Assembly (NCBI RefSeq): GCF_014192335.1
Contig: NZ_JACHXU010000001.1
Coordinates: forward strand, 62,001-126,000
DNA: 64,000 nucleotides
Reading direction: 5' to 3'
Source of the DNA: Aporhodopirellula rubra
GTDB lineage: Bacteria; Planctomycetota; Planctomycetia; Pirellulales; Pirellulaceae
In this document: positions 1-16,065 of the stretch, one piece after another
Layout of the letters: each line of letters begins with the position of its first letter
Numbering within the stretch: position 1 is the first letter of the stretch
Translations under genes and position numbers: made by a program
The notes under the pieces: model-generated
Seen by the model: the letters and a program-made list of their open reading frames with translations, nothing else
Database searches by the model: none
Told to the model about the DNA's origin: nothing

Positions 1-919
1 TTTTCCACAACACGAACCAAGGCAGCGTGGATGTCTTGAATCGAACCGACAACCCGCGTGCTCCTTTTGCATCGGCGATCATTGCATGCGCCATCCCCGA
101 TTCGTCAGCACACGGTTTGGCGAAATAAACTCGTTCTTGGTATCCCGATGTCGGACCGTCAAAGCGTTCCCAGCGGTCGATCTCTTCGGCCGCATGGTCG
201 TCACGTGGCGCGACTTCTTCAACGGCAACGTTCAATCGAGCGTCTTTGCCGAGCACGGGGCTGCCGAGGTTGATGTGATACAGCATTTGCATCGAGGCCG
301 GCGTCGACAGTTCGTTGGTTACGTCGTCGAGCAGTTCAACGTCATCGCGGTCGGCGTGGATCCGAACGCGGGTGCGCATTCGCAAGCGTTTGAAGAACAG
401 TTTGGCTTCGATCGTTTCGGCGACCAATTCGGCTCGCCCCGATGCCTCGTCGAATTCGACCGATATCGCGTCGGCGGGAGTGTTGGCGATATGACCGTGG
501 AGCGGATAAACCAACCGCCCCGACGCGTCGTGTTCGGGCGCACCGTTGCTCTCGAGTCCGCACCGGGCCACGAGTTCGTCGAAGCCCGACAGCCAACCCA
601 AACCGCTCGGCTCACTGACGTCGACGTAGTTCGGGTGAACCGGTCCAACGACAGGTGATTGCCACTGGTAGCGAATGCCTCCGGCCTGCATTCGCCAAAT
701 CGACATGCCGCGTGTCGGCAGGATGTCGACGTGCATGCGAGAGTTGGCCATGCGGATAATTTCGACGCCTTCGCTGACACCACCGCGGAAAACTCCGCTG
801 CGGATCGTCAGTTCTCCGACGCGGGTTTCGATTGTGAGATGCAGCGGGCTGGATTCGTCCCACTCAATTCGCTGTTCGCGGTCATCGGTCGTTCGCAGGA
901 CAATAGATTCAGTCGGCAT
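1..919 (-). CDS. DUF4432 family (aldose-epimerase-like) protein, 3' end cut by window edge
   Basis: This minus-strand frame is open from an ATG at 919 to the window's left edge, so the C-terminus is missing. About 306 residues are visible. The stretch reading RMHVDILPTRGMSIWRM, followed by GPVHPNYVD and later PLHGHIANTP, is typical of DUF4432. These proteins share the galactose-mutarotase/aldose-epimerase fold and are thought to act on sugars. I see no signal peptide, so it is probably cytoplasmic. An in-frame ATG at 1009 would add 30 residues of low-complexity character, so I prefer 919; neither start has a clear Shine-Dalgarno site. It is divergent from the cupin-type pseudogene at 1221, and the two may once have formed a small sugar-related locus. 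The exact substrate is unknown. Confidence 0.75.
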   Translation of the reverse strand, partial: MPTESIVLRTTDDREQRIEWDESSPLHLTIETRVGELTIRSGVFRGGVSEGVEIIRMANSRMHVDILPTRGMSIWRMQAGGIRYQWQSPVVGPVHPNYVDVSEPSGLGWLSGFDELVARCGLESNGAPEHDASGRLVYPLHGHIANTPADAISVEFDEASGRAELVAETIEAKLFFKRLRMRTRVRIHADRDDVELLDDVTNELSTPASMQMLYHINLGSPVLGKDARLNVAVEEVAPRDDHAAEEIDRWERFDGPTSGYQERVYFAKPCADESGMAHAMIADAKGARGLSVRFKTSTLPWFVLWK

Positions 920-1220
920 GACGGAAAAAGGGGTTAAGGGAGATGGCGTATGATTGGAAAACCGCTCGGAAATCCGGCGGGAATTTTGGTGGTCGGAATC
1001 GACGTCCATGCGATGTCGCGGAGGTCGAATTGATTCGTCGTGAGATAAGTCAGATAGCGTCGAGGTCGAGTTAGGCAGCTCTAGGTGAATTCGTTTCGCG
1101 TAAGGCGTTGGGGTCAGGTGCGATCGGTGCCAAACGGGGTATCCTATAGACTGAGGCTGTGAATGCCGCCCCCCCCCGATTTTCCCGCTTTTATGCAAAT
1201 CTGTAAGCGGGGCCGCCCTG
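920..1220. other. intergenic region between divergent genes
   Basis: No gene is apparent. It separates the DUF4432 gene from the cupin-type pseudogene and should hold both promoters. It contains a run of nine C residues near 1171. I could not assign promoter boxes. Confidence 0.4.
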
Positions 1221-2527
1221 ATGAGCAACGTGAAATTAGATGAAGGCCTCCTAAAAGGCGACAGTGTCACCAAGTTACTCGATTAGGCAATGGATGCGGG
1301 TGACGGACTTTTGCGTCTGACGCCTACCTGGGTGCCTCGCTCGTTCTTGCACCCCGGACGCCGGATCAAATTGCATCCTGGTGATTATTACCGCTTTGGA
1401 GCCGATCGGGGCGGAATCGGCAAACGATGGTTCGGCAGCACGACTGAGGCTGCTAACGATGGGCGTGTTTGGCACGATGGCCTCAGTTTTGCCTTTTCGA
1501 AGGAAAAAAATTCTTGCTCAAAGATGCCGTCGCCGAACGAGGTGTTGATCTCGTCGGAAAATCGGTCTTCAAAAAGTATGATCGATGGCCAGTGTATTCG
1601 AAATTCTTCGACAACATGGGGCCGATTCCGCATCACATGCACCAGTCGTTCGAGGACACGAAACTGGTCGGGCAAGAGGGCAAGCCGGAGAGTTATTATT
1701 TCCCGCCACAGATCAACAATATCGATAACAACTTTGCCCACACGTTCATGGGGCTCGAGCTCAGGCTCAAGCCCGGCACGGAACCCGCCGATGTTCGGCG
1801 ATGTTTGGAAAACTGGAACGCGGGCGACAATGGCATCCTCGACCTCAGCCGCGCGTACCGCCTCAAGCGGGGGACCGGTTGGTTGATCCCACCGAGAGTC
1901 CTGCACGCACCAGGTTTACTCTGCACGTAAGAACCCCAATGGGGCAGCGGCGTGTTCGGCATGTATCAATCGGTCGTCGACGGCCGCTACGTGCCTTGGT
2001 CACTGTTGGTCAAAGACATGCCTGAAGAGAAACACCAGGACCTGGACTTCATCGTCGGCCAGTTGGAATGGGACAAGAACGTGGACACCCACTTCAAGAA
2101 CAGCAACTATCTCGAACCCGTCCGCGACAAAAAACGCAGTGGCGACGGATACGATGACCTTTGGATCGTCTACAGAACCGTCGATGGACAGCAGTTCTTC
2201 AGTGCCAAAGAGTTGACATCGCAACCGGGTGCGAAGTGCACCTTGCAAGACGGTGCAACGAGCAGTTGGATCACGGTGCAGGGACGCGGACGAATGGGAT
2301 CACTCGATCTGCAAACGCCAGCCATGATTCGTTTCGGCGAAAACACGACTGACGAGGTCTTCATCTCACACGTCGCGGCAACCAAGGATGTTGAGATCGA
2401 AAACCTCGGCAGCGAACCGCTCGTGAGGCTTCGTTACTTTGGCCCCGACGCCCACTCTGATTTGCCCAAAGCGGGGTTTCGAGAAAATTGCGTCGGCTCA
2501 CGTTACATGCTGAGCCCGACTCGTTGA
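1221..2527 (+). pseudogene. cupin-type protein, disrupted by two in-frame stops and one frameshift
   Basis: Read together, the pieces form one ~435-residue protein starting MSNVKLDEGLLKGDSVTK at 1221. Codon 22 is TAG (1284-1286), where the context LLD-x-AMDAGDG suggests an ancestral Gln. The frame continues through TPTWVPRSFLHPGRRIKLHP to about 1485-1500, where a one-base deletion moves the reading into the next frame (FEGKKFLLKDAVAERG). A TAA at 1928-1930 (GLLCT-stop-EPQWGSG) then interrupts it, most simply a former Tyr codon. The frame runs on in phase to 2527 (DLWIVYRTVDGQQFF, TTDEVFISHVAA). The two halves look like a bicupin, judging by the GTGWLIPPRVLHAPG and AMIRFGENTTDEVFIS segments. 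The function of the ancestor is unknown. Three lesions in about 700 bases make a genuine pseudogene more likely than sequencing error. Confidence 0.7.
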
Positions 2528-2626
2528 CCTACCGATCGCTCCGTCGACCGGTAACTCCAACTTGAGCAGACTTCGATCACGCTGGCGATCGGTATGCTCT
2601 TTCTAAATCTCGTAACCGGGGTCGGC

Positions 2627-3349
2627 TTAGTACAAGCGGAACTCGATCGATCCGTTCAGCACGACCGCGTCTTCGGTGTCGACCTGTCCAGCTCGCCACA
2701 CGGCGAAGTCGTCGAAGTAGTTCAGTCCGAAGATCGCACGGGCTGGGATGCCACAGCAGTCGAATTCGGTTTTGATGTCGAACCCGTACGTGGTCGTGAA
2801 TCCACCGGTCGTTCCCGTGTTGAATCCACCGGCTCCGTCATCGCCGACGTAGGCCCCGTCGAGGTCGTACAGACCCAACGTCAGGTCGAGCCATACGGGC
2901 GTGCGGCCGAAACAGGTTTCCCATCCGGTGACGACTTTGGCACCTTGGTAGTTCGACTCGATGTCGTGTCCCACGGTGTCTTGGTCCCAATCCATCATGC
3001 TGTAGCCGAAGCCGGCCGACAGGTGATGTTTGCCAAAGTCCCACGTGTCACGAAGCAACACGTCCACGCCGACCATTTCGGCCGAGTCGGAGATGCCGTA
3101 CGTAACTCCCGATTCGATGCTCGTCCGGTAACCATCAAAACGATGGTGTCCCGAAAGCCCAAGAACCGTGCCAACCGAATCACCCGAGTCGTTGGCGAGG
3201 TCCGGCAACAGCGGAGCCCAAAGGCCAACGGACGAATTCAGTTCGGTGCCTTCAATGGCAGATGCCGAGTTGGCACCGAGGGTGAGCCACCCGGTGAGCG
3301 TCATGACGACGACACCGCTGAGGCTCCAAAGTGATCTATTGCAACGCAT
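2627..3349 (-). CDS. Small secreted protein, outer-membrane beta-barrel-like
   Basis: The 240-aa product starts MRCNRSLWSLSG and has a clear signal peptide: basic start, hydrophobic core, cleavage probably after ANSASA near residue 31. The mature part alternates short polar and aromatic strands (HHLSAGFGYSMMDWD, VWLDLTLGLYDLDGAY, ARAIFGLNYFDDF) and ends SIEFRLY. A terminal aromatic residue is typical of outer-membrane barrel proteins. I do not recognise a named family; planctomycetes carry many such proteins. An upstream in-frame ATG at 3406 would add 19 residues before the signal peptide and is less likely. The opposite strand has a long open frame (2594-3334) without such features. The gene is convergent with the cupin pseudogene and divergent from the kinase. 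Confidence 0.65.
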   Translation of the reverse strand: MRCNRSLWSLSGVVVMTLTGWLTLGANSASAIEGTELNSSVGLWAPLLPDLANDSGDSVGTVLGLSGHHRFDGYRTSIESGVTYGISDSAEMVGVDVLLRDTWDFGKHHLSAGFGYSMMDWDQDTVGHDIESNYQGAKVVTGWETCFGRTPVWLDLTLGLYDLDGAYVGDDGAGGFNTGTTGGFTTTYGFDIKTEFDCCGIPARAIFGLNYFDDFAVWRAGQVDTEDAVVLNGSIEFRLY

Positions 3350-3583: not shown

Positions 3584-5878
3584 ATGGACGTGACACCCGA
3601 GCCCGCCGCCGATGACCGAGACTCTGCCACCAGAAGTGCTTCCGCGGACGCCTGCGCAGCCGGTGACGACAACGCGTCGCTCGATGAAATCATGCTCGAA
3701 TGCCTGCAGGCGTTCTCCGATGCCGAGAATACCGATGCGCCCGAATGTCTGGTCGCGTATCTGCCTGACGCTGACGACGACACCCGGCATTTCGTTCTTG
3801 TCGAGTTAATCAAACTGCAGATGGCAATGGCGGTGGAATCGGGATGCCCACGTCCGCTCGAGCACTATTACACGGCGTTGCCCGACCTGATCACTCCCGA
3901 GTCGACGCCGCTTGACCTCGTCATGGAAGACATCCAGTTGCAGCGTGAATGCGGGCTGGAACCCGGATATGCCGAGTTTGCCGCTCGCTATCCTCAATAC
4001 GCTGACTCGCTCGCCCCCTTGCTCGGCGTTTGCGAAACTGCCATGCCTCGCGAGCAAACTCAGCCACCCGACCCGATCGATCCGGGGGCCACTGTCGATG
4101 ATTTCGAGATCCTCCAACTACTCGGTAAAGGTGCCTTCGCGCACGTCTATCTCGCTCGCCAAATCTCGATGTCACGTCTTGTTGCGGTCAAAGTTTCGCG
4201 AGCGAAAAAATGTCTTGTTAACGAGGACGGGGAATCACGGGCGCTCGCGCAGTTCGATCATCCCAACATCATCCGCGTCTTCGATCAGCGGTTCCTGGAT
4301 GACCCGCCACTGCATTTGCTGTACATGCAGTTTCATCCTGGTGGCACTTTGGCGGACGTGATCGCGAAAGCCAAAACAACCCACCGCATGCGACGTCGCG
4401 GAAGTCTGTTGCTGCAGTCGGTCGATGAGAATCTGTTGGCTGCCGCGCAAGTCGTTCCCGAACGTTCGGCTGTTCGCGAGTGGATCCGCGATGTCGAGTG
4501 GCCCAAACTCGTGGCTTGGATCGGTATCCAAATCGCTCACGCGTTGCAGACCGCTCATGACACCGGTGTGTTGCATCGCGATGTGAAACCCGCCAACGTT
4601 CTGCTCACTGCGGAGGGCATTCCGCAACTCGCTGATTTCAACGTCAGCCTCGCGGGAGCGGCCGGACGAGCCGGCGCCGCCTGTTCGCTCGGCGGGTCCG
4701 TCGGTTACATGTCACCCGAACACCTCCGCGCGATCACGGCCAATGTGATGGCACCGAAAGAAGACGTGCGGGAGCGGGCTGATTTGTATTCGTTGGCGGT
4801 CTTGCTCTGGGAGTTATGGCAGGGCACGCGACCGTTCGATTGTGCCGCCAACGCCGACTCGTGGACGCAAGCGGTGTCGAACCAACTCGATGGCAGGTTG
4901 AAAGAATTGCGACCGCCTGATCGAGACGATACGGCGTCTCAGCGTGTGCTCGAATCGGTGCTCCGCAAAGCCCTCTCAGCCGACCCCGATTCGCGACCAT
5001 GGAGCGGGTCTGAATTTGCAGGAAGTCTGCGTTTAGCCGTGCATCCCGAGGCCGCCGAACTGTTTGAACCCAACCCGAACTCATGGACGGCTTGGTTGAT
5101 GCGCCGCTCCCCTTGGTGGGTCACGATCGTGGTCATCCTCCTGCCCAACATGGCGGCCGGTCGATTTCACTATCTGTACAACTTCAACGAGATCATGACC
5201 GAGACCACGCAGAACGGTCTCGATGCACTCTCGTATCAAATTAACCTGACGTTTTTTCCCATTTGTGCACTGTTGGTGATCGCTTTCACGCGAGCACCGA
5301 TGCGGGCGTTGCAGGCCGCGTCCGCAGGTCACGCAGTGAATCACTCTGACGTGAAGGCGACCTTGCAACTCGGGCATCTCGCCGCGTTGATCGGTGGCGG
5401 TTGTTGGATTTTCGCCGGCGTCTTGATGCCGTATTTGTTGGCGAGACGGTTTCCTGAATTCACGACCAGCCAATCGATTCATCTTTTCGTCTCATCGCTG
5501 GTTTGTGGTGGCGTGGCGATGATCTATCCGTTCTTCTCGCTCGGTTTGATTTGCGCCGGTGCGTACTACCCCAAAATGATCCGCCCCACCATGCAGGATC
5601 CGGAGTTCGAGCGGAACGCGGGACGAGTGATCGGGCAAAGTGAATCCTACTTGTTGATCGCCGCGTTGATCCCACTCGTCGGTGCGGCACTGTTGATTTT
5701 CAGCGAAAGCCAATCGCGGCATTTCATGTTGATCGCGATTATCGCCGGAATGATCGGGCTACTGGGGTCGTTCATCGCCTATCGAAAAATGGTCCAGATG
5801 TGGGGACGGCTCGGCGAAGTTCTCTCGGTTTCGGGGGCGACCGTTCCCGGCGATAGTCGAGGTAACCGCGGCGTCTAA
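3584..5878 (+). CDS. Membrane-bound Ser/Thr protein kinase (planctomycete type)
   Basis: The 764-aa protein has an acidic N-terminal region of ~175 residues, a protein kinase domain (~175-470) and six predicted membrane segments (~508-750). The kinase shows the glycine loop LGKGAFAHVYLA (~180), the VAVK lysine (~203), HRDVKPANVLL (~331) and MSPEHL (APE-like). The metal-binding DFG is instead DFN (LADFNVS, ~351). This Gly-to-Asn change could alter activation, although HRD, the VAVK lysine and the DFx Asp are all present. The C-terminal multi-pass membrane tail places it in the cytoplasmic membrane with the kinase domain inside. An upstream in-frame ATG at 3485 would add 33 residues; I prefer 3584 because the acidic N-terminal region begins there. 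The substrate is unknown, and neighbours do not suggest an operon. Confidence 0.85.
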   Translation: MDVTPEPAADDRDSATRSASADACAAGDDNASLDEIMLECLQAFSDAENTDAPECLVAYLPDADDDTRHFVLVELIKLQMAMAVESGCPRPLEHYYTALPDLITPESTPLDLVMEDIQLQRECGLEPGYAEFAARYPQYADSLAPLLGVCETAMPREQTQPPDPIDPGATVDDFEILQLLGKGAFAHVYLARQISMSRLVAVKVSRAKKCLVNEDGESRALAQFDHPNIIRVFDQRFLDDPPLHLLYMQFHPGGTLADVIAKAKTTHRMRRRGSLLLQSVDENLLAAAQVVPERSAVREWIRDVEWPKLVAWIGIQIAHALQTAHDTGVLHRDVKPANVLLTAEGIPQLADFNVSLAGAAGRAGAACSLGGSVGYMSPEHLRAITANVMAPKEDVRERADLYSLAVLLWELWQGTRPFDCAANADSWTQAVSNQLDGRLKELRPPDRDDTASQRVLESVLRKALSADPDSRPWSGSEFAGSLRLAVHPEAAELFEPNPNSWTAWLMRRSPWWVTIVVILLPNMAAGRFHYLYNFNEIMTETTQNGLDALSYQINLTFFPICALLVIAFTRAPMRALQAASAGHAVNHSDVKATLQLGHLAALIGGGCWIFAGVLMPYLLARRFPEFTTSQSIHLFVSSLVCGGVAMIYPFFSLGLICAGAYYPKMIRPTMQDPEFERNAGRVIGQSESYLLIAALIPLVGAALLIFSESQSRHFMLIAIIAGMIGLLGSFIAYRKMVQMWGRLGEVLSVSGATVPGDSRGNRGV

Positions 5879-5955: not shown

Positions 5956-7839
5956 TTATTGCAGGTGCGGTAGCAGTTCGTCGACGAGAGTCTCGTCAAG
6001 ATTCTCGAGGCTTGTCATGACTTTCTTGCGTTCGTCCGCCGTGAACAGCTCGATCGCTTTCGCGAGCCAGTGCACGTTAGGGAAATAGTGATAACCCTTG
6101 CGTTTCTTGATTCGAACCCGTTCTTCGCTGAGTCCGCCGAGAAGTGCGAGAATCGTGTCGCACCGTTTGCGATAATTGCATGCCGACAACTTGTAGGCGA
6201 TCAATTGATCGTCGAACGTGATCGCCTTTTTGTTGACCTGATGCGATAAGTGTTCGGCTAAGAATTCCAGCGCGGCCCGATCTTTCGCCGAAACACTATG
6301 CACCAACAGTTCCAGGTCGCGAGCTTCCACGAAATCGTCGAGCCAGCGTGAATCGAGGCGAACGCCGTTCTTCTTTTGGCTCGCCTGCATTTCGCCTTCG
6401 CCCGCGTCCCAACTCCATTCGCCGAACAAACTGTCACGGCCGAGGTTCTCGATCGCTGATCGGAACTCAACGTATTTGTGAGCTTCCTGTTTGGCTTGCG
6501 CGGTTTGTTTGCCCCGCTTCTTGGGCTTGGGGTCGCCTGAATACACGCGGTAGAGTGGAGAGAACGTGTCGTAAAAGGTTGCCGCTGGATAGCTCTGCAG
6601 CGCCGCACGCAGGCACGACCCGATCAATTCTTCAGGAGCATCGACGTGATGACTGGCAATCAATCCGATCTGTGCGGGTTTCCCGTGATCAAGGCTCCAG
6701 TTCACGATCGCCTGCAAGATGTCGCTGCCGGTTGAGTACTTTCCACGCACGCTCAGAAGATCGTCCCAGCGATCGAGTATTTCTTTGGCAAACTTTTGCA
6801 ATGCCGCGTCGTTGCGGAGCGTGAAGCACGCCCATCCCGCTTGAAAACGGTTGATCAATTCATCGGCTTGTGTCTTTTCAGCGCTGCTGAGTTTGGGCTT
6901 GTCAAGCAAAGGTTGCAATTCGACGAGCGTGCCCCTGAGTAACTCCAAAACGAGTTTCAAACGCGACTTGCTGTATTGCTCGCGGATTGCCGACGCGACC
7001 CTCCATGATTCCTCGCCTTTCAATCGTGAGACGAGGAGTTCGTTGACTTCTGGTTTGTCGAATAAAGCGAGTCGCGAATAGGTCGCTTCGCGCACTTCAC
7101 GCTGTTTCGAAACCGCCTGCTGCATTAGCAGTTCCAGGTCGCTGGGGTCGTCGCCGAGGCACGCGACCGCGGCGAGCTTCATTTCTTTTGATCCATTCTC
7201 GAATGCATCCAGAACCATCGGTCTGGCTTTTGGGGGAACCAACCGATGAAGGATTCGCAATCGCCGTCCATCACCGCTCTTGCCTTTAATCGTGATCGCA
7301 TCTTCGATCAACGGCACGATCGAAGGCCCATAATCGCCGACGATCTTTTCCATGAGTTCCGCCATTTCGGAGTACCGGTCATCCAGTCCCGCGACCGCGT
7401 GATTGACGAGGCGGGGATCCTGAAACACGCCTTGCTGATACGCTTTTCGAACCGTTTCCAAACGTCCCGACCCGCCACTCGAGAGAGCTTCGATGACCGG
7501 TTTGAGCAAACGAGCGGGGGTTTGAGTTTGCGTTAGAGGTATGCCAATACTCTTGATCGGTTTGATTCGTCCCTTGCCGCCGAGTTCGCCTTGCGTGTAC
7601 AGGATCGCCATCACGAGAGAACTGAGATCGAGTAGCGCCGCCGCGGACTCCTTTGGCGCCGCTTTGACCAGTCGCTCGACGCTTTGAGCAACCTTTGCAA
7701 ACACCGGAGCCTTCTGGCCACTTTTATTGAGAACAGGGATGAGTTTTTTCAGTCGGAAATCATCGGCAGCGAGGTTGCTGCCCGCGATCGCTAACCGACG
7801 GGTCTCATCGAACACTTGATGCAATGCGGCAATCGACAT
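5956..7839 (-). CDS. HEAT/ARM-like alpha-solenoid protein of the retron locus
   Basis: This 627-aa protein has no signal peptide or membrane segment. It is built of short amphipathic helix pairs, clearest in the middle: ALSSGGSGRLETVRKAYQQG, PSIVPLIEDAITIKG, EMKLAAVACLGDDPSDLELL and REVREATYSRLALFDKPEV. This is the spacing of HEAT/ARM repeats. I see no nuclease, TIR, ATPase or zinc-binding motif; in particular no CxC...CxH SWIM motif. An AGGA about 10 bases before the ATG supports the start. It is the last gene of a minus-strand run, 32 bases after the 203-aa gene that overlaps the reverse transcriptase. From memory of the published retron classification, type XIII retrons encode an ARM/HEAT-repeat protein, so this is the best candidate effector or effector scaffold. 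That role is inference. Confidence 0.7.
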   Translation of the reverse strand: MSIAALHQVFDETRRLAIAGSNLAADDFRLKKLIPVLNKSGQKAPVFAKVAQSVERLVKAAPKESAAALLDLSSLVMAILYTQGELGGKGRIKPIKSIGIPLTQTQTPARLLKPVIEALSSGGSGRLETVRKAYQQGVFQDPRLVNHAVAGLDDRYSEMAELMEKIVGDYGPSIVPLIEDAITIKGKSGDGRRLRILHRLVPPKARPMVLDAFENGSKEMKLAAVACLGDDPSDLELLMQQAVSKQREVREATYSRLALFDKPEVNELLVSRLKGEESWRVASAIREQYSKSRLKLVLELLRGTLVELQPLLDKPKLSSAEKTQADELINRFQAGWACFTLRNDAALQKFAKEILDRWDDLLSVRGKYSTGSDILQAIVNWSLDHGKPAQIGLIASHHVDAPEELIGSCLRAALQSYPAATFYDTFSPLYRVYSGDPKPKKRGKQTAQAKQEAHKYVEFRSAIENLGRDSLFGEWSWDAGEGEMQASQKKNGVRLDSRWLDDFVEARDLELLVHSVSAKDRAALEFLAEHLSHQVNKKAITFDDQLIAYKLSACNYRKRCDTILALLGGLSEERVRIKKRKGYHYFPNVHWLAKAIELFTADERKKVMTSLENLDETLVDELLPHLQ

Positions 7840-7871: not shown

Positions 7872-8483
7872 TCAGAGTTGGGGAATTTTGGTTGGCGTTG
7901 CGGCGGCAATCTCATCGGCAACGCACGGTAGGTTCGCTCGATCGGCGTCGCCGCGTGCCACGATGCGATCGACCAGGATGCGGCGCAGTGTGGGGTGCGA
8001 CAACACGACCGACATTGATTTCGGAGAGAGGTCCGTTTGAATGCCGATCGCCGAGAGTGGCCAACGGGCGGCCAGTTCGCGGATCGTCGTTCGTAGTGGA
8101 TCGAGTTGATTGGCGCCCGCACACCGACGGTCAATATCAGCGAGCACACGCAACACGAGGTCGACGGACCAGTGTTCGCTAGCGGACGTTCCCGACGGCC
8201 GGTTCGCCGCGAGGTCCGCCGGCAATTCCGTCGCGACGTCAATTCGGTCGAGCAAAGTACGGCAGAGAAAGTGCATCGTCTGTGCCGCCCAGCACGCACT
8301 ACGAAGGCACAGCGGTGGTGCGTCGCCGGGCGCATCGGAGCGAGCCAATCGGTCGGTCTCTCGAATGAAGGTGCGCAGTCGATCTTCATCCGCAGGCGAG
8401 ATCGCGTGCGTGTCAAATGAACCCACCACGACCACGCCGCCTTGGTTGATCGCGTCAAACACATCGCTGATCGGAGTCGTCAT
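7872..8483 (-). CDS. Uncharacterised 203-aa protein coupled to the retron RT
   Basis: The ATG at 8483 overlaps the reverse transcriptase stop (ATGA), and an AGGAG lies 7 bases upstream inside the RT gene, so it is translationally coupled. The product is soluble and mostly helical. Landmarks are GGVVVVGSFDTHA near the N-terminus, APPLCLRSACWAAQTMHFLC in the middle, and a C-terminal segment ARWPLSAIGIQT then HPTLRRILVDRIVARGDA. I cannot name the family. The C-terminal pattern reminds me of small helical proteins encoded beside MoxR-ATPase/vWA gene clusters, but this is memory only. An in-frame upstream start at 8582 would lie inside the RT gene and lacks support. Its position between RT and the solenoid gene makes it a likely retron component. 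Confidence 0.6.
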   Translation of the reverse strand: MTTPISDVFDAINQGGVVVVGSFDTHAISPADEDRLRTFIRETDRLARSDAPGDAPPLCLRSACWAAQTMHFLCRTLLDRIDVATELPADLAANRPSGTSASEHWSVDLVLRVLADIDRRCAGANQLDPLRTTIRELAARWPLSAIGIQTDLSPKSMSVVLSHPTLRRILVDRIVARGDADRANLPCVADEIAAATPTKIPQL

Positions 8484-9769
8484 GTCGTCTCCTGCTTTAA
8501 TACTTGGTCGAGCTGGGAACGCAATCGTTCTCCTTTTGCGGGGTCGACGAAGCCAACGTATCCGATCATGCCGGTCACCCATCCCAGGAAATCAGCGTGC
8601 CCCTCACGGTTCTGTGCTTCGAGCCCTTCCGTTTTGGCATGGTGCAGAATCGAACGCAGTTGGCGAACGGTTTCTCGCGGGACGCCGATGCGATCGTTCA
8701 CCACCAGCCCCGTGACGGTTTGTCGTCCGCTGCGACGCTGCACTCTCGTCTTGGAGTCGTTGATCGCAAACCGTTCGTCTCGAACGATGCCGCCGACTCG
8801 ATGCATCAAATACCCGATTTGCGAATCATCCTTGCCGCTCGTAGAGAACGAAAGGTCATCGGCGTAACGCGTGTACGTCCATCCCAATTTTTCGCACAAT
8901 CCCGTCAGTCGCCTGTCCATCGATCGGCAGACTAGATTGCTGATCGCGGGACTGGTGCACGCACCCTGTGGTAACTGCCTGGGACCCGTCGCAAGCCATA
9001 ACCGCGAATGGTTCACCGTGTCGATGCTACTCGCATTGACGTTGCTGGTATCCATGTCGATTGGCGTTCGAGGCGACTCGGTACACAGAAGCGCCAGCAC
9101 GGTCGCCGTTTGGCGACTGTATCCGAGCGACGCGAACCATCCCCGCACGCGTGGGAAGGTGATCGTCGGAAAGAAGTCCGAAAGATCCATGTTCACGATC
9201 ACGTCTTGGCCAACATGAGGTTGTGCCGCCGTTGTCGTGCTACGTCCAAGCACGAATCCGTGAGCAGCGTCATGCGGAGGAATCAATCGCAGAATCTCGC
9301 GGTCGATCCATCGACAGCATGCCGCAATCTGGGGACGTGGGGCGGCGATCGAACGCACTCCCCCGCTTTTCTTTTCTACGATGAAATGGATGTAATGGCA
9401 CGACGCCTGAGCGTCTCGATGATAAGCCAGCCATCGCAGCCTCCGAGCGGAAAATCCAATCGCTTCGGCGAGTTGTTCCGGTGTTTTGAGAACGGGCAGT
9501 CCGGCCGATGACAATCGTTCGACGTCCGTCACTCGTTGCCCGAGTTCGTAAGAAACACCATCACCGAGATAACCAAACGGTTCCGCCGCAGGGGCCGTTC
9601 GCCGGCGAGCCAACCATGACAAATCGAGTTGCTCTTTCAAGCGAACCGCAGGCAACGGTCGCTTCCGATGCAGGTTGAACGATTCGGCCATCGCGTGCCG
9701 ATCGGCCTCCGAAGTTTTCGGCAATTTCGGTGGCGCGATCAAGCGTCGGAGCGAATCCCACACGGACAT
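8480..9769 (-). CDS. Retron-type reverse transcriptase
   Basis: The 429-aa enzyme should copy the msd part of its own ncRNA into a branched, multicopy single-stranded DNA. An N-terminal extension (1-115) precedes the RT fingers and palm: KKSGGVRSI (~133), DLSDFFPTI with the first catalytic Asp (195), QGACTSPAISN (268-278) and the catalytic YADD (302-305). VTG follows at 352-354, a triplet characteristic of retron RTs and used to recognise the msr. There is no maturase or endonuclease domain, as a group II intron enzyme would have. GAGGAAGGG about 8 bases before ATG 9769 supports the start. The ncRNA ends 36 bases upstream, the classical arrangement. The phrases HDAAHGFVLGRS and LALLCTE resemble, from memory, the myxobacterial Mx162-type RTs placed in retron type XIII. 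Confidence 0.93.
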   Translation of the reverse strand: MSVWDSLRRLIAPPKLPKTSEADRHAMAESFNLHRKRPLPAVRLKEQLDLSWLARRRTAPAAEPFGYLGDGVSYELGQRVTDVERLSSAGLPVLKTPEQLAEAIGFSARRLRWLAYHRDAQASCHYIHFIVEKKSGGVRSIAAPRPQIAACCRWIDREILRLIPPHDAAHGFVLGRSTTTAAQPHVGQDVIVNMDLSDFFPTITFPRVRGWFASLGYSRQTATVLALLCTESPRTPIDMDTSNVNASSIDTVNHSRLWLATGPRQLPQGACTSPAISNLVCRSMDRRLTGLCEKLGWTYTRYADDLSFSTSGKDDSQIGYLMHRVGGIVRDERFAINDSKTRVQRRSGRQTVTGLVVNDRIGVPRETVRQLRSILHHAKTEGLEAQNREGHADFLGWVTGMIGYVGFVDPAKGERLRSQLDQVLKQETT

Positions 9770-9805: not shown

Positions 9806-10037
9806 GGGAAAGGAAGCGGTGAACCGACTGAAGCCAACTTCGCGTCTGAGGCCCGATTCGTCGGGTCCCCTCTCCATCGGTGAGATGGTCACGTACGTGA
9901 TATTGTCCCATCTCACCGATGGAGAGGGGACAATACCGGCGATTCGAGGAAGCGAATGCTTCTCGAATTTCAACCACGGCGGAACACCGCAGCAATTCAG
10001 GTCTTCGCGTCGTCGGAACGAATCCGCTTCCTTTCCC
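9806..10037 (-). ncRNA. msr-msd: Retron msr-msd noncoding RNA
   Basis: Read on the minus strand, the RNA starts with a1 (GGGAAAGGAAGCGG, 10037-10024) and ends with a2 (9819-9806), its perfect 14-nt complement. Inside a1/a2 the msr part has a small hairpin GCGG-TGTT-CCGC (9990-9979) and a longer one (9968-9942: 7 bp, one bulge, 4 bp, 4-nt loop). The msd part follows with a perfect 24-bp stem (9931-9908 pairing with 9888-9865) and a 19-nt loop. The G of AGC near the inner end of a1 is the natural candidate for the branching guanosine, by analogy with known retrons. Exact msr/msd boundaries and the DNA length cannot be fixed from sequence. The whole unit sits directly upstream of the RT, as in all classical retrons. 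Confidence 0.9.
9865..9931 (-). repeat. Perfect 24-bp inverted repeat forming the msd stem
   Basis: Arms 9865-9888 and 9908-9931 are perfectly complementary; the loop 9889-9907 contains the 12-nt palindrome TCACGTACGTGA. A second, competing repeat pairs TATTGTCCC (9901-9909) with GGGACAATA (9927-9935). Confidence 0.95.
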
Positions 10038-10139: not shown

Positions 10140-11021
10140 TCAAATTTTGTTGAGCCGGTTGGTGTACCCGCTGAACTGCGTGACGCGGACCGCCTCGGCC
10201 CATGTTTGTACGAACGGTGAAGCCGCCTGCGATGCGACGCGTTCCATTTCACGTCGCCCCAACTCGGACGCCCACAACGATGCGTAGGGTGGCGTCGCAT
10301 CGTCGTCAATCAAGTCCCGCAAATCAGCATTGCCGGCCAAGCGAACTTTACGGGAACTGAATTCGAGTCCGGGGTGTTTGCCGAAACACGCTTTCATCAA
10401 ACACCACGCGTCCAGTAATTGAGCACCATCTTTGGGAAACGACTGCGGGTACCAACGCAACGCCTTGCCCATCGTTTTGACGAAATCGCTGGGAGTCTCT
10501 TTTGCGAACTCTCGTATCGATCTCCAGACGAACCGGCGAACGTATTGACGCGTCGCCAGCGAGAATAAACGTTTCTGATGCGTTGCTCCGCGAGCGAACC
10601 AGATTCGTCGTTCGCGTTGATCGTGACCGATCGGCAACACCGGCATGACGCGGTCGTATGGACGGTCCAATCGGACTCCGTCAACCCAACCACGCTGCAC
10701 GTAGTCCCAAACCCGGACGTGACGAAGATCGTGGACCACCAATTGATCCGCCATCACCATCGCCGCAGCGAGCACGCCGCCCCGGCGTTGTTCATCCGCC
10801 GCGACGATCAATCGCCTCACGACAACCTCATGCCCCGGTGAAGCGGGGATGCCGAGCAAGTATCGCTGTGCCTCTTCGGCCTCCCATTGCCGCCGACTGA
10901 GCACCCACTCGTCGACGACGTCCGCCAGCACTTCCGGCCGCGACTCCGCGATCAATTCCGGCACGAAACGCGGGTCTCGATCACGCAGGAGTTGCAGCAA
11001 TAAGCGAGCGTCATCATTCAT
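10140..11021 (-). CDS. Uncharacterised 293-aa protein upstream of the retron
   Basis: The product is soluble, helical and rich in Arg and Trp. It begins MNDDARLLLQLLRDRDPRFV. The central part reads RQYVRRFVWRSIREFAKETP, then QLLDAWCLMKACFGKHPGLEF, and later ASLWASELGRREMERVA. I cannot name it. The pattern x-W-R-x-hh-R-E-hA, then LLDxWxLMxxxF, then LW recalls a repeated region of large planctomycete and myxobacterial proteins of unknown function, from memory only. It is on the same strand as the retron, ending 102 bases before the ncRNA, so it could be its first gene or an older neighbour. A 6-bp hairpin (10080-10095) lies between them, without a T-run. Membership in the retron system is unproven. 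Confidence 0.6.
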   Translation of the reverse strand: MNDDARLLLQLLRDRDPRFVPELIAESRPEVLADVVDEWVLSRRQWEAEEAQRYLLGIPASPGHEVVVRRLIVAADEQRRGGVLAAAMVMADQLVVHDLRHVRVWDYVQRGWVDGVRLDRPYDRVMPVLPIGHDQRERRIWFARGATHQKRLFSLATRQYVRRFVWRSIREFAKETPSDFVKTMGKALRWYPQSFPKDGAQLLDAWCLMKACFGKHPGLEFSSRKVRLAGNADLRDLIDDDATPPYASLWASELGRREMERVASQAASPFVQTWAEAVRVTQFSGYTNRLNKI

Positions 11022-14673: not shown

Positions 14674-14820
14674 TAAGTTGTTAGCCGCGAACTCCGCAGG
14701 ATGAAAAGCATCCGCTGGCGTCCACTTTCACATACGACAGTAAGCGGGACGCCAGCGAGGATGCCAAGCATTACCCAGTAGTAACTCACCGCGTCCGGTA
14801 ACGTGCTGATACAAAGCAAT

Positions 14821-15981
14821 GATGGTGGCTGTGGTTTTTACCACGAAATGGACGAACGACACGAAAGCGGTGGGTGGGTTTCTTTCGTATGGTTTGCGTG
14901 TTTCGTGGTTTCTGATCGCTGTTGCTTTGCTAGCGGCAGGGTGCGAGCTGTCCGTTGCCACGTGGGTAAAAGCGTATCGTCATAGAAGGTGCTTGCCGAT
15001 GTCCTTGCTCCGTGTGATAGCCGTCGCGGAAGTGATGGTCGGTGTTTTTTCTACCACGAAATGAACGAAAGACTCGAAAGTGGTGGGTGGGTTTCCTTTC
15101 GTTTTGTTCGCGTGTTTCGTGGTTTCTGATCGCTGTTGCTTTGCTAGCGGCAGGGTGCGAGCTGTCCGTTGCCACGTGGGTAAAAGCGTGTCGTCATAGA
15201 AGGTGCTTGCCGATGTCCTTGCTCCGTGTGATAGCCGTCGCGGAAGTGATGGTCGGTGTTTTTTCTACCACGAAATGGACGAACGACACGAAAGCGGTGG
15301 GTGGGTTTCCTTTCGTTTTGTTCGCGTGTTTCGCGGTTGCTGATCGCTGTTGCTTTGCTAGCGGCAGGGTGCGAGCTGTCCGTTGCCACGTGGGTAAAAG
15401 CGTATCGTCATAGAAGGTGCTTGCCGATGTCCTTGCTCCGTGTGATAGCCGTCGCGGAAGTGATGGTCGGTGTTTTTTCTACCACGAAATGAACGAAAGA
15501 CTCGAAAGTGGTGGGTGGGTTTCCTTTCGTTTTGTTCGCGTGTTTCGTGGTTGCTGATCGCTGTTGCTTTGCTAGCGGCAGGGTGCGAGCTGTCCGTTGC
15601 CACGTGGGTAAAAGCGTGTCGTCATAGAAGGTGCTTGCCGATGTCCTTGCTCCGTGTGATAGCCGTCGCGGAAGTGATGGTCGGTGTTTTTTCTACCACG
15701 AAATGGACGAACGACACGAAAGCGGTGGGTGGGTTTCCTTTCGTTTTGTTCGCGTGTTTCGCGGTTGCTGATCGCTGTTGCTTTGCTAGCGGCAGGGTGC
15801 GACCTGTCCGGTGTCACGTGGGAAAGTGCGTGTAGGCGAAGAAGGTGCTTGCCGATGTCCTTCCTCCGTGGAATAGCCTTCGCGGAAGTGATGGTGGGTG
15901 TGTTTTTTTACCGCGAAATGAACGAAAGACACGAAAGTGGCGGGTGGGTTTCCTTTCGTTTGGTTCGCGTGTTTCGTGGTT
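14821..15981. repeat. Tandem array of a ~214-bp repeat, six copies
   Basis: Copies are marked by the ACCACGAAATG box (ACCGCGAAATG in the last copy) at 14840, 15053, 15267, 15481, 15695 and 15910, so the period is 213-215 bases. Two variants alternate strictly: GAAATGGACGAACGAC and GAAATGAACGAAAGAC, so the array is really a ~428-bp dimer repeated three times. Within each unit ACCACGAAA and CGAAAG are inverted as CTTTCG and TTTCGTGGT about 40 bases later, giving an imperfect ~28-bp hairpin. Each unit has open frames on both strands, one resembling a signal peptide, but they carry no consistent start or ribosome site. The first and last copies are diverged. Confidence 0.9.
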
Positions 15982-16065
15982 GCTAATCGCTAATCGCTAA
16001 TCGCTAATCGCTAATTGCTAATCGCTAACCGCTAACCGCTAACCGCTAACCGCTAACCGCTAACC
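15982..16065. repeat. Heptanucleotide microsatellite, 12 units
   Basis: Six units of GCTAATC (one GCTAATT) are followed directly by six units of GCTAACC. The array starts where the last 214-bp repeat's GTGGTTGCTGATCGCTG would continue, so it probably grew from that repeat's own sequence. Confidence 0.95.

What the first reader, a model, noticed from the sequence alone, without database searches (positions are those of the whole stretch)
9806..10037. Complete retron ncRNA directly upstream of a retron-type RT
The sequence shows a perfect 14-nt inverted repeat pair (a1 10024-10037, a2 9806-9819) bracketing two small hairpins and a perfect 24-bp stem-loop, ending 36 bases before an RT with YADD and VTG. 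That is the full set of retron hallmarks and is rarely annotated automatically, especially in planctomycetes. The RT wording recalls myxobacterial Mx162-type enzymes (type XIII), which is from memory.
Basis: partly seen in the sequence, partly recalled or inferred. Interest (0 to 1): 0.92.

Follow-up and report, generated by a model that had tools for sequence, protein, structure and literature searches.

The report
Pared-down type XIII retron in planctomycetes
A planctomycete bacterium carries a real but stripped-down version of a retron, a bacterial element usually linked to defence against viruses, which lacks several parts that its relatives keep and has a gene from a different conflict system directly behind it.

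Summary
A 232-nt minus-strand ncRNA (10037-9806) with a perfect 14-nt outer repeat and a perfect 24-bp hairpin ends 36 nt before a 429-aa RT (9769-8480). The RT is type XIII (PADLOC RT_XIII, 472 bits; next model 362) and sits in a type XIII clade (97/97). In Aporhodopirellula aestuarii the same ncRNA is 124/130 identical in its 5' part and 78/79 in its 3' part, while synonymous sites of its neighbours are strongly diverged. It lacks the SWIM gene, the C-terminal half of HEAT-ARM, the covarying msd basal stem seen in 11 of 11 relatives' ncRNAs, and an RT N-terminal segment seen in 11 of 11 relatives. A stand-alone bpX4 protein (MoxR-vWA-beta-propeller ternary-system family) starts in an ATGA overlap with the RT stop. 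On one unbroken contig of a distant family (G434), a retron-type RT with a strongly structured upstream region is likewise followed by bpX4 and then MoxR, so the link is not confined to two sister species. New variant of a known kind; msDNA and defence untested.

The parts
10140..11021 (-). Short HEAT-ARM protein, 293 aa: N-terminal half of the type XIII HEAT-ARM family
   Evidence: PADLOC HEAT-ARM_XIII E 7e-97, profile 4-263 of 564; same end point and 219/292 identical in A. aestuarii, dN/dS 0.15; full-length relatives are 555-629 aa ORFs
9806..10037 (-). Retron ncRNA (msr-msd), 232 nt
   Evidence: nearly unchanged in A. aestuarii
10024..10037 (-). a1 repeat
   Evidence: perfect complement of a2
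9806..9819 (-). a2 repeat
   Evidence: perfect complement of a1
10001..10006 (-). GAAGAC, proposed to hold the priming G (10003)
   Evidence: RAGAC is seen by eye in all 12 aligned ncRNAs, before the msr hairpin; assignment as branch site is inference
9974..9993 (-). msr hairpin GCTGCGGTGTTCCGCCGTGG, family signature
9943..9967 (-). second small hairpin (approximate bounds)
   Evidence: minimum-energy folds
9865..9931 (-). msd hairpin, 24-bp perfect stem with 19-nt loop
   Evidence: a 21-nt stretch of its stem occurs nowhere else in the genome at up to 3 mismatches, its two own arms apart
9838..9841 (-). GAAG, conserved template end beside a2; proposed start of reverse transcription
   Evidence: GAAGT is invariant in the 12 aligned ncRNAs; role is inference
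8480..9769 (-). Retron reverse transcriptase, 429 aa, type XIII
   Evidence: PADLOC RT_XIII E 4.8e-142, 472 bits against 362 for the next model; tree; YADD, VTG, AAQPH
7872..8483 (-). bpX4 protein, 203 aa from the ATG that overlaps the RT stop (ATGA)
   Evidence: Pfam PF19920 E 1.3e-34 (scanned from an earlier in-frame start at 8582); overlap and dN/dS 0.13
5956..7839 (-). HEAT-repeat protein, 627 aa: probably a host neighbour and not part of the cassette
   Evidence: present without RT or bpX4 beside it in same-genus G012

Best explanation
This is a working, streamlined type XIII retron. The ncRNA folds through a1/a2. The RT primes on the 2'-OH of a G in GAAGAC (about 10003) and copies the msd from about 9838 through the perfect hairpin, giving a branched msDNA that stays bound to the RT (inferred from retron biochemistry). 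In the usual type XIII system the RT-msDNA complex most likely holds a HEAT-ARM plus SWIM pair in check and releases or activates it on phage attack (inferred). Here that interface is pared down: SWIM, the HEAT-ARM C-half, the conserved msd basal stem and an RT N-terminal segment are absent. The short HEAT-ARM stays as a partner, and the translationally coupled bpX4 most likely replaces the lost output side, as an adaptor shared with MoxR-vWA-beta-propeller conflict operons. Shown: anatomy, homology, joint absence, purifying selection, and a second retron-type RT in front of bpX4-MoxR in a distant family. Inferred: msDNA, defence, the role of bpX4.
For: RT type and placement. ncRNA structure, homology and conservation. 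Of the 12 other RTs in its clade, 9 have full HEAT-ARM and SWIM genes beside them, one (L041) has both elsewhere in its genome, and two (L118, L122) are cut by contig ends. SWIM_XIII has no match at E 0.001 in G000 or A. aestuarii G008. The msd basal stem is in 11 of 11 relatives' ncRNAs, with both-side changes at two pairs, and gapped in the window. The EIHEVG-like RT segment is in 11 of 11 relatives and 0 of 2 short-type RTs (by alignment). dN/dS: RT 0.05, HEAT-ARM 0.15, bpX4 0.13. Among 40 distinct bpX4 places checked with their flanks, an RT lies directly in front of bpX4 on the same strand in three: G000, G008 and G434. In G434 one contig carries RT (RT_XIII best, 264 bits), 29 nt, bpX4, then bpMoxR; the region before the RT has a perfect 19-bp hairpin (0 of 200 shuffles) and z -6.7. 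G022 has an RT remnant sister to the window RT (95/91, bootstrap not settled) behind a HEAT-ARM start, and on another contig a bpX4 whose ATG overlaps the stop of an RT-like end.
Against: Only two intact short-type examples are known and they are close relatives, so the joint losses count as one lineage. The ncRNA profile hit covers only model positions 6-57 of 185, so homology of the msd half is not shown. G434's RT is only 14 bits closer to RT_XIII than to RT_II-A (264 against 250), and no perfect outer repeat of 8 nt or more was found there. The G022 join rests on two contig ends that do not overlap; the C-terminal match is weak against the window RT (103 of 2000 shuffles as good) and better against one relative (8 of 2000). 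Of 40 bpX4 places, 30 have no RT within the flank held, several cut by contig ends. dS is high and partly saturated, so the ratios are rough. No sigma-70-like promoter was found, though planctomycete promoters may differ. AlphaFold models of short HEAT-ARM and bpX4 matched nothing in the PDB at E 0.001.
Confidence: 0.74

Rival explanations
1. The retron works with short HEAT-ARM alone, and bpX4 and the HEAT protein are neighbours without a role.
For: HEAT2 occurs without the retron in G012; bpX4 normally starts its own operon with MoxR and other genes; 30 of 40 bpX4 places have no RT in the flank held.
Against: RT and bpX4 share an ATGA overlap in both short-type species; in distant G434 a retron-type RT again lies directly before bpX4 on one contig; a similar overlap is seen at the G022 contig start.
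Confidence: 0.23
2. An ordinary type XIII retron that has decayed: effector genes were lost and the RT and ncRNA are a remnant beside an unrelated bpX4.
For: SWIM and half of HEAT-ARM are gone; G022 shows a clearly broken relative.
Against: Short HEAT-ARM ends at the same point in two species with dN/dS 0.15; RT dN/dS 0.05; the ncRNA is nearly unchanged while the spacers on either side differ. A dead locus would not keep these.
Confidence: 0.14
3. The hairpin is a transcription terminator or mobile-element repeat rather than msd.
For: Long perfect inverted repeats are common in such elements (general knowledge, no call).
Against: A 21-nt stretch of the stem is found only in its own two arms in the genome; the msr hairpin and GAAGT are shared with 11 ncRNAs beside related RTs; the whole element is conserved in A. 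aestuarii.
Confidence: 0.03

Closest known systems
Type XIII retrons (PADLOC RT_XIII with HEAT-ARM_XIII or WGR_XIII plus SWIM_XIII)
   Same: RT family and clade, HEAT-ARM homologue, msr hairpin, ncRNA in front of the RT
   Different: No SWIM; HEAT-ARM halved; msd basal stem and an RT N-terminal segment absent; bpX4 coupled behind the RT
Retron-Mxa1 (Mx162)
   Same: Long ncRNA (241-nt transcript by PMC6868368, passages seen; 232 nt here); RT with an N-terminal extension
   Different: Relationship not tested, no Mx162 sequence held; priming context is CAGC there and AAGA here
MoxR-vWA-beta-propeller ternary systems (Pfam bpX families)
   Same: bpX4 family, in a clade with bpX4 of G022, G037 and G040 (97/96)
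   Different: No MoxR, bpX2 or large bpX genes beside it; one bpX4 match in the genome

Membership tests
Retron | RT of the retron clade with YADD and VTG | tested here: met
   YADD, VTG and NAxxH as described in PMC6868368 passages; region X reads AAQPH instead of NAxxH
Retron | msr-msd RNA with complementary a1/a2 ends of about 8-30 nt | tested here: met
   14 nt perfect; range from PMC6868368
Retron | Branched msDNA | not testable with these tools
   needs nucleic acid extraction
Type XIII retron | RT assigned to RT_XIII | tested here: met
   472 bits against 362 for the next model
Type XIII retron | HEAT-ARM or WGR protein | tested here: inconclusive
   family met, only profile 4-263 of 564 present
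Type XIII retron | SWIM protein | tested here: not met
   no match in the whole genome, nor in A. aestuarii
Type XIII retron (this subclade) | ncRNA with msr hairpin and covarying msd basal stem | tested here: inconclusive
   msr hairpin present; basal stem absent
Mx162-like retron | RT groups with Mx162 | not tested
   no Mx162 sequence held
MoxR-vWA-beta-propeller ternary system | bpX, MoxR and beta-propeller genes together | tested here: not met
   only bpX4 found at the locus

The most novel reading that the evidence does not exclude
A new retron type: the RT-msDNA complex has changed its output partner from the HEAT-ARM/SWIM pair to bpX4, so that a retron feeds into the MoxR-vWA-beta-propeller conflict machinery; G434, with RT, bpX4 and MoxR in one row, would be the fuller form. 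The four parts absent together here (SWIM, HEAT-ARM C-half, msd basal stem, RT N-terminal segment) mark the physical interface of the ordinary type XIII complex.
Probability: 0.43. Interest if true: 0.74.

Novelty: new variant of a known kind. Interest (0 to 1): 0.55.

Why it matters
If the joint loss is functional, it points to which msd and protein pieces contact each other in type XIII retrons; my paper searches turned up no mechanism for them, though the classification paper itself was not held. It also suggests that retrons can be rewired to a different conflict system through one gene. The alignment gives a planctomycete msr-msd family; the window member matches no Rfam 15 retron family.

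Tried and rejected
Rfam at gathering score and at E up to 5: no retron family matched; microRNA matches rejected as hairpin artefacts. HEAT2 (5956-7839) was first counted as part of the system and rejected, because G012 carries it directly beside tRNA-Val with no retron. Other copies of the msd stem in the genome were sought and not found. The viral-contig collection has no exact match to the msr motif. Structure comparison of short HEAT-ARM and bpX4 gave nothing usable. A divergent RT beside ternary operons in family f43 was considered as independent support and set aside: the one such RT that I scanned fits PADLOC RT_other best, and the pairs may simply be inherited neighbours. My reading of MSVWDSLRRL as an N-terminal anchor helix was dropped after the alignment, where it lines up with an internal segment of the relatives. 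A search for bpX4 among 99 genomes around G434 found a match in 7, G434 itself included, and in none of the 15 other members of its family f52, so the G434 arrangement stands alone in its family.

Numerical slips: one identity count (38 of 125) came from a wrong offset and is not used; the BLAST value (95.4% over 130) is. In one search the first shuffle test used the wrong 35 residues; one search repeats it on the right segment (0 of 5000). Rows left out: L124, L125, L110, L113 and L042 have related hairpin motifs near their RTs but were not put in the ncRNA alignment; L118 and L122 are cut by contig ends; L122 was left out. In one search the motif search missed L038, whose segment is seen in the alignment, so 11 of 11 is by alignment; an N-terminal hydrophobic or proline-rich lead is plain in 9 of the 11 (L118 cut, L040 start unsure). 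The 11 ncRNAs come from 10 loci.

Literature: searches. The type XIII classification paper was not held, so the definition of type XIII rests on PADLOC model names and my recall of that paper. Passages only were seen of PMC6868368, PMC12548924, PMC7159879 and PMC8867640; all other papers were seen only as search listings.

Full report
What is there. On the minus strand the order is a 293-aa protein (11021-10140), an ncRNA (10037-9806), an RT (9769-8480), a bpX4 protein (8483-7872) and a HEAT-repeat protein (7839-5956). The outer repeat and the hairpin were reached by 0 of 300 shuffles and the fold is 8.3 standard deviations below shuffles.

What it is. PADLOC assigns the RT to RT_XIII at 472 bits, 110 bits above the next model. 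In a tree of 41 RTs it falls, with A. aestuarii, inside a 14-row clade (97/97). Of the other 12 members, nine have a full HEAT-ARM gene and a SWIM gene beside them by my own profiles; L041 has both on other contigs of its genome; L118 and L122 are cut by contig ends. PADLOC names were checked on three of these loci: HEAT-ARM and SWIM of L037 and L040, and SWIM of L038. A WGR/SWIM/RT version also lies on a Methylobacterium bullatum plasmid, by my own profiles.

The ncRNA is conserved. The A. aestuarii contig NZ_JAMQBK010000045.1 is letter for letter the G008 contig C106 over the 7,376 bases held, so G008 is taken as that species. Two G008 contigs end inside the msd hairpin: C64 carries the short HEAT-ARM and the 5' part, C106 the 3' part and the RT. 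The 5' match is 95.4% over 130 nt and the 3' part is 78 of 79. The spacer between HEAT-ARM and a1 differs in length (102 against about 22 nt) and the spacer before the RT is not conserved, so conservation stops near the a1/a2 bounds. Synonymous sites are strongly diverged over the same stretch (pS 0.73 for RT, 0.68 for bpX4, 0.57 for HEAT-ARM). Eleven ncRNAs from ten relatives align to it. A profile built from those 11 alone finds one place in the 64-kb window, 10001-9948, E 7.8e-7; the match covers the msr part only, model positions 6-57 of 185.

What is missing. The 11 relatives share a basal msd stem with changes on both sides at two pairs (A-U 8 / G-C 3; G-C 9 / A-U 2), and the window ncRNA has a gap there; 3 of 18 predicted consensus pairs in all show both-side changes. 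All 11 relatives' RTs carry a GL-TPEELAEIHEVGAEMD-like segment, and 9 of 11 plainly carry a hydrophobic or proline-rich lead before it; the two short-type RTs lack the segment and begin further in. SWIM_XIII has no match in the whole genome, nor in G008 and G012, but has in G010 and G068. The HEAT-ARM protein covers only profile positions 4-263 of 564 and ends at the same point in both species. Four parts of one system absent together suggest, but do not prove, that they work as one interface; both short-type species share the losses by descent, so this is one case.

What is added. The bpX4 ATG overlaps the RT stop (ATGA) in both species. Elsewhere bpX4 commonly starts a row with MoxR, bpX2 and two large proteins. 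The window bpX4 groups with those of G022, G037 and G040 (97/96). I checked the 40 distinct bpX4 places for an RT in the flank held, up to about 1.5 kb. Ten have one: G000, G008 and G434 on the same strand directly before bpX4, and seven genomes of family f43 divergently. The other 30 have none, several being cut by contig ends.

G434. On one 15.6-kb contig, a 346-aa ORF with YADD, VTG and NAIPH lies 29 nt before bpX4 (PF19920, E 8e-47), which overlaps a bpMoxR gene (PF20030, E 3e-98) that runs off the contig; upstream lies a LacI-type gene. PADLOC scores this RT best with RT_XIII, 264 bits, but RT_II-A follows at 250. The stretch before the RT holds a perfect 19-bp hairpin, 0 of 200 shuffles as long, and folds at z -6.7, 0 of 100 as stable; no perfect outer repeat of 8 nt or more was found. 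I read it as a probable retron in front of a ternary operon. Fifteen other members of its family searched have no bpX4 match.

G022. One contig ends in an ORF that starts like HEAT-ARM (0 of 5000 shuffles as good) and continues as the C-terminal part of an RT sister to the window RT (95/91, bootstrap not settled); another contig begins with 15 residues that resemble an RT end and overlap by ATGA a bpX4, followed by MoxR and bpX2. The two contigs do not overlap, so the join is inferred.

Where it sits. In same-genus G012 the tRNA-Val lies about 450 bp from the HEAT2 gene with no retron between, against about 3.5 kb in the window. HEAT2 is thus probably an older neighbour, and the cassette is short HEAT-ARM, ncRNA, RT and bpX4.

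How it probably works. Priming at G10003 and copying from about 9838 are inferred from the usual retron rules (PMC6868368 passages) and the conserved RAGAC and GAAGT. That the RT-msDNA complex guards a toxic or signalling partner is inferred from other retrons. Which of short HEAT-ARM and bpX4 is the effector is unknown; I favour bpX4 as an adaptor and short HEAT-ARM as the retained docking partner. Neither AlphaFold model (mean pLDDT 82.7 and 82.0) matched a solved structure at E 0.001.

Verdict. A real retron by sequence, type XIII by RT, failing the SWIM criterion, best called a reduced and possibly rewired variant. Interest is moderate: the retron itself is of a known kind, while the concerted reduction and the bpX4 coupling are unexpected and testable. 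The odds of the bpX4 reading were raised and those of the bystander rival lowered after one search showed G434.

Noticed in passing
L169 (G434), 1-2870, minus strand: Retron-type RT, bpX4 and bpMoxR in one row behind a strongly structured region, in a distant family.
   Followed up: partly
L039 (G064), minus strand, about 10270-9655: Two tandem ncRNAs with nearly identical scaffolds but different msd hairpin sequences in front of one RT.
   Followed up: partly
L040 (G010), 5345-5615: The ncRNA lies between HEAT-ARM and SWIM instead of directly before the RT.
   Followed up: partly
L112 and L115 RT N-termini; L107, L042 and L108 RT C-termini: Some type XIII RTs start with a hydrophobic helix that looks membrane-spanning, others with MGFFDWL-like helices; L107 and L042 end in PWWKIW and L108 in PWWMFWARWFN.
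   Followed up: partly
L160-L164, L168 and L158 (family f43): An RT lies divergently beside bpX4 in 7 of the 12 f43 genomes with a bpX4; one scanned RT fits PADLOC RT_other best.
   Followed up: partly
L101 (G055) and L102 (G030): HEAT2 relatives lie in a row with similar-sized neighbours; in G055 a SWIM gene precedes and a MoxR-type AAA gene follows.
   Followed up: partly
L124 (G241), 5000-5380: An RT with the same msr hairpin motif but no HEAT-ARM or SWIM match within the fetched stretch.
   Followed up: partly
window 34381-62568: One open reading frame of 9395 aa on the + strand.
   Followed up: no
window 14819-15986: Near-identical ORFs repeated about every 214 bases, so a repeat array.
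   Followed up: no
G000 C6:170751-171797: A second RT in the same genome, PADLOC RT_other.
   Followed up: partly
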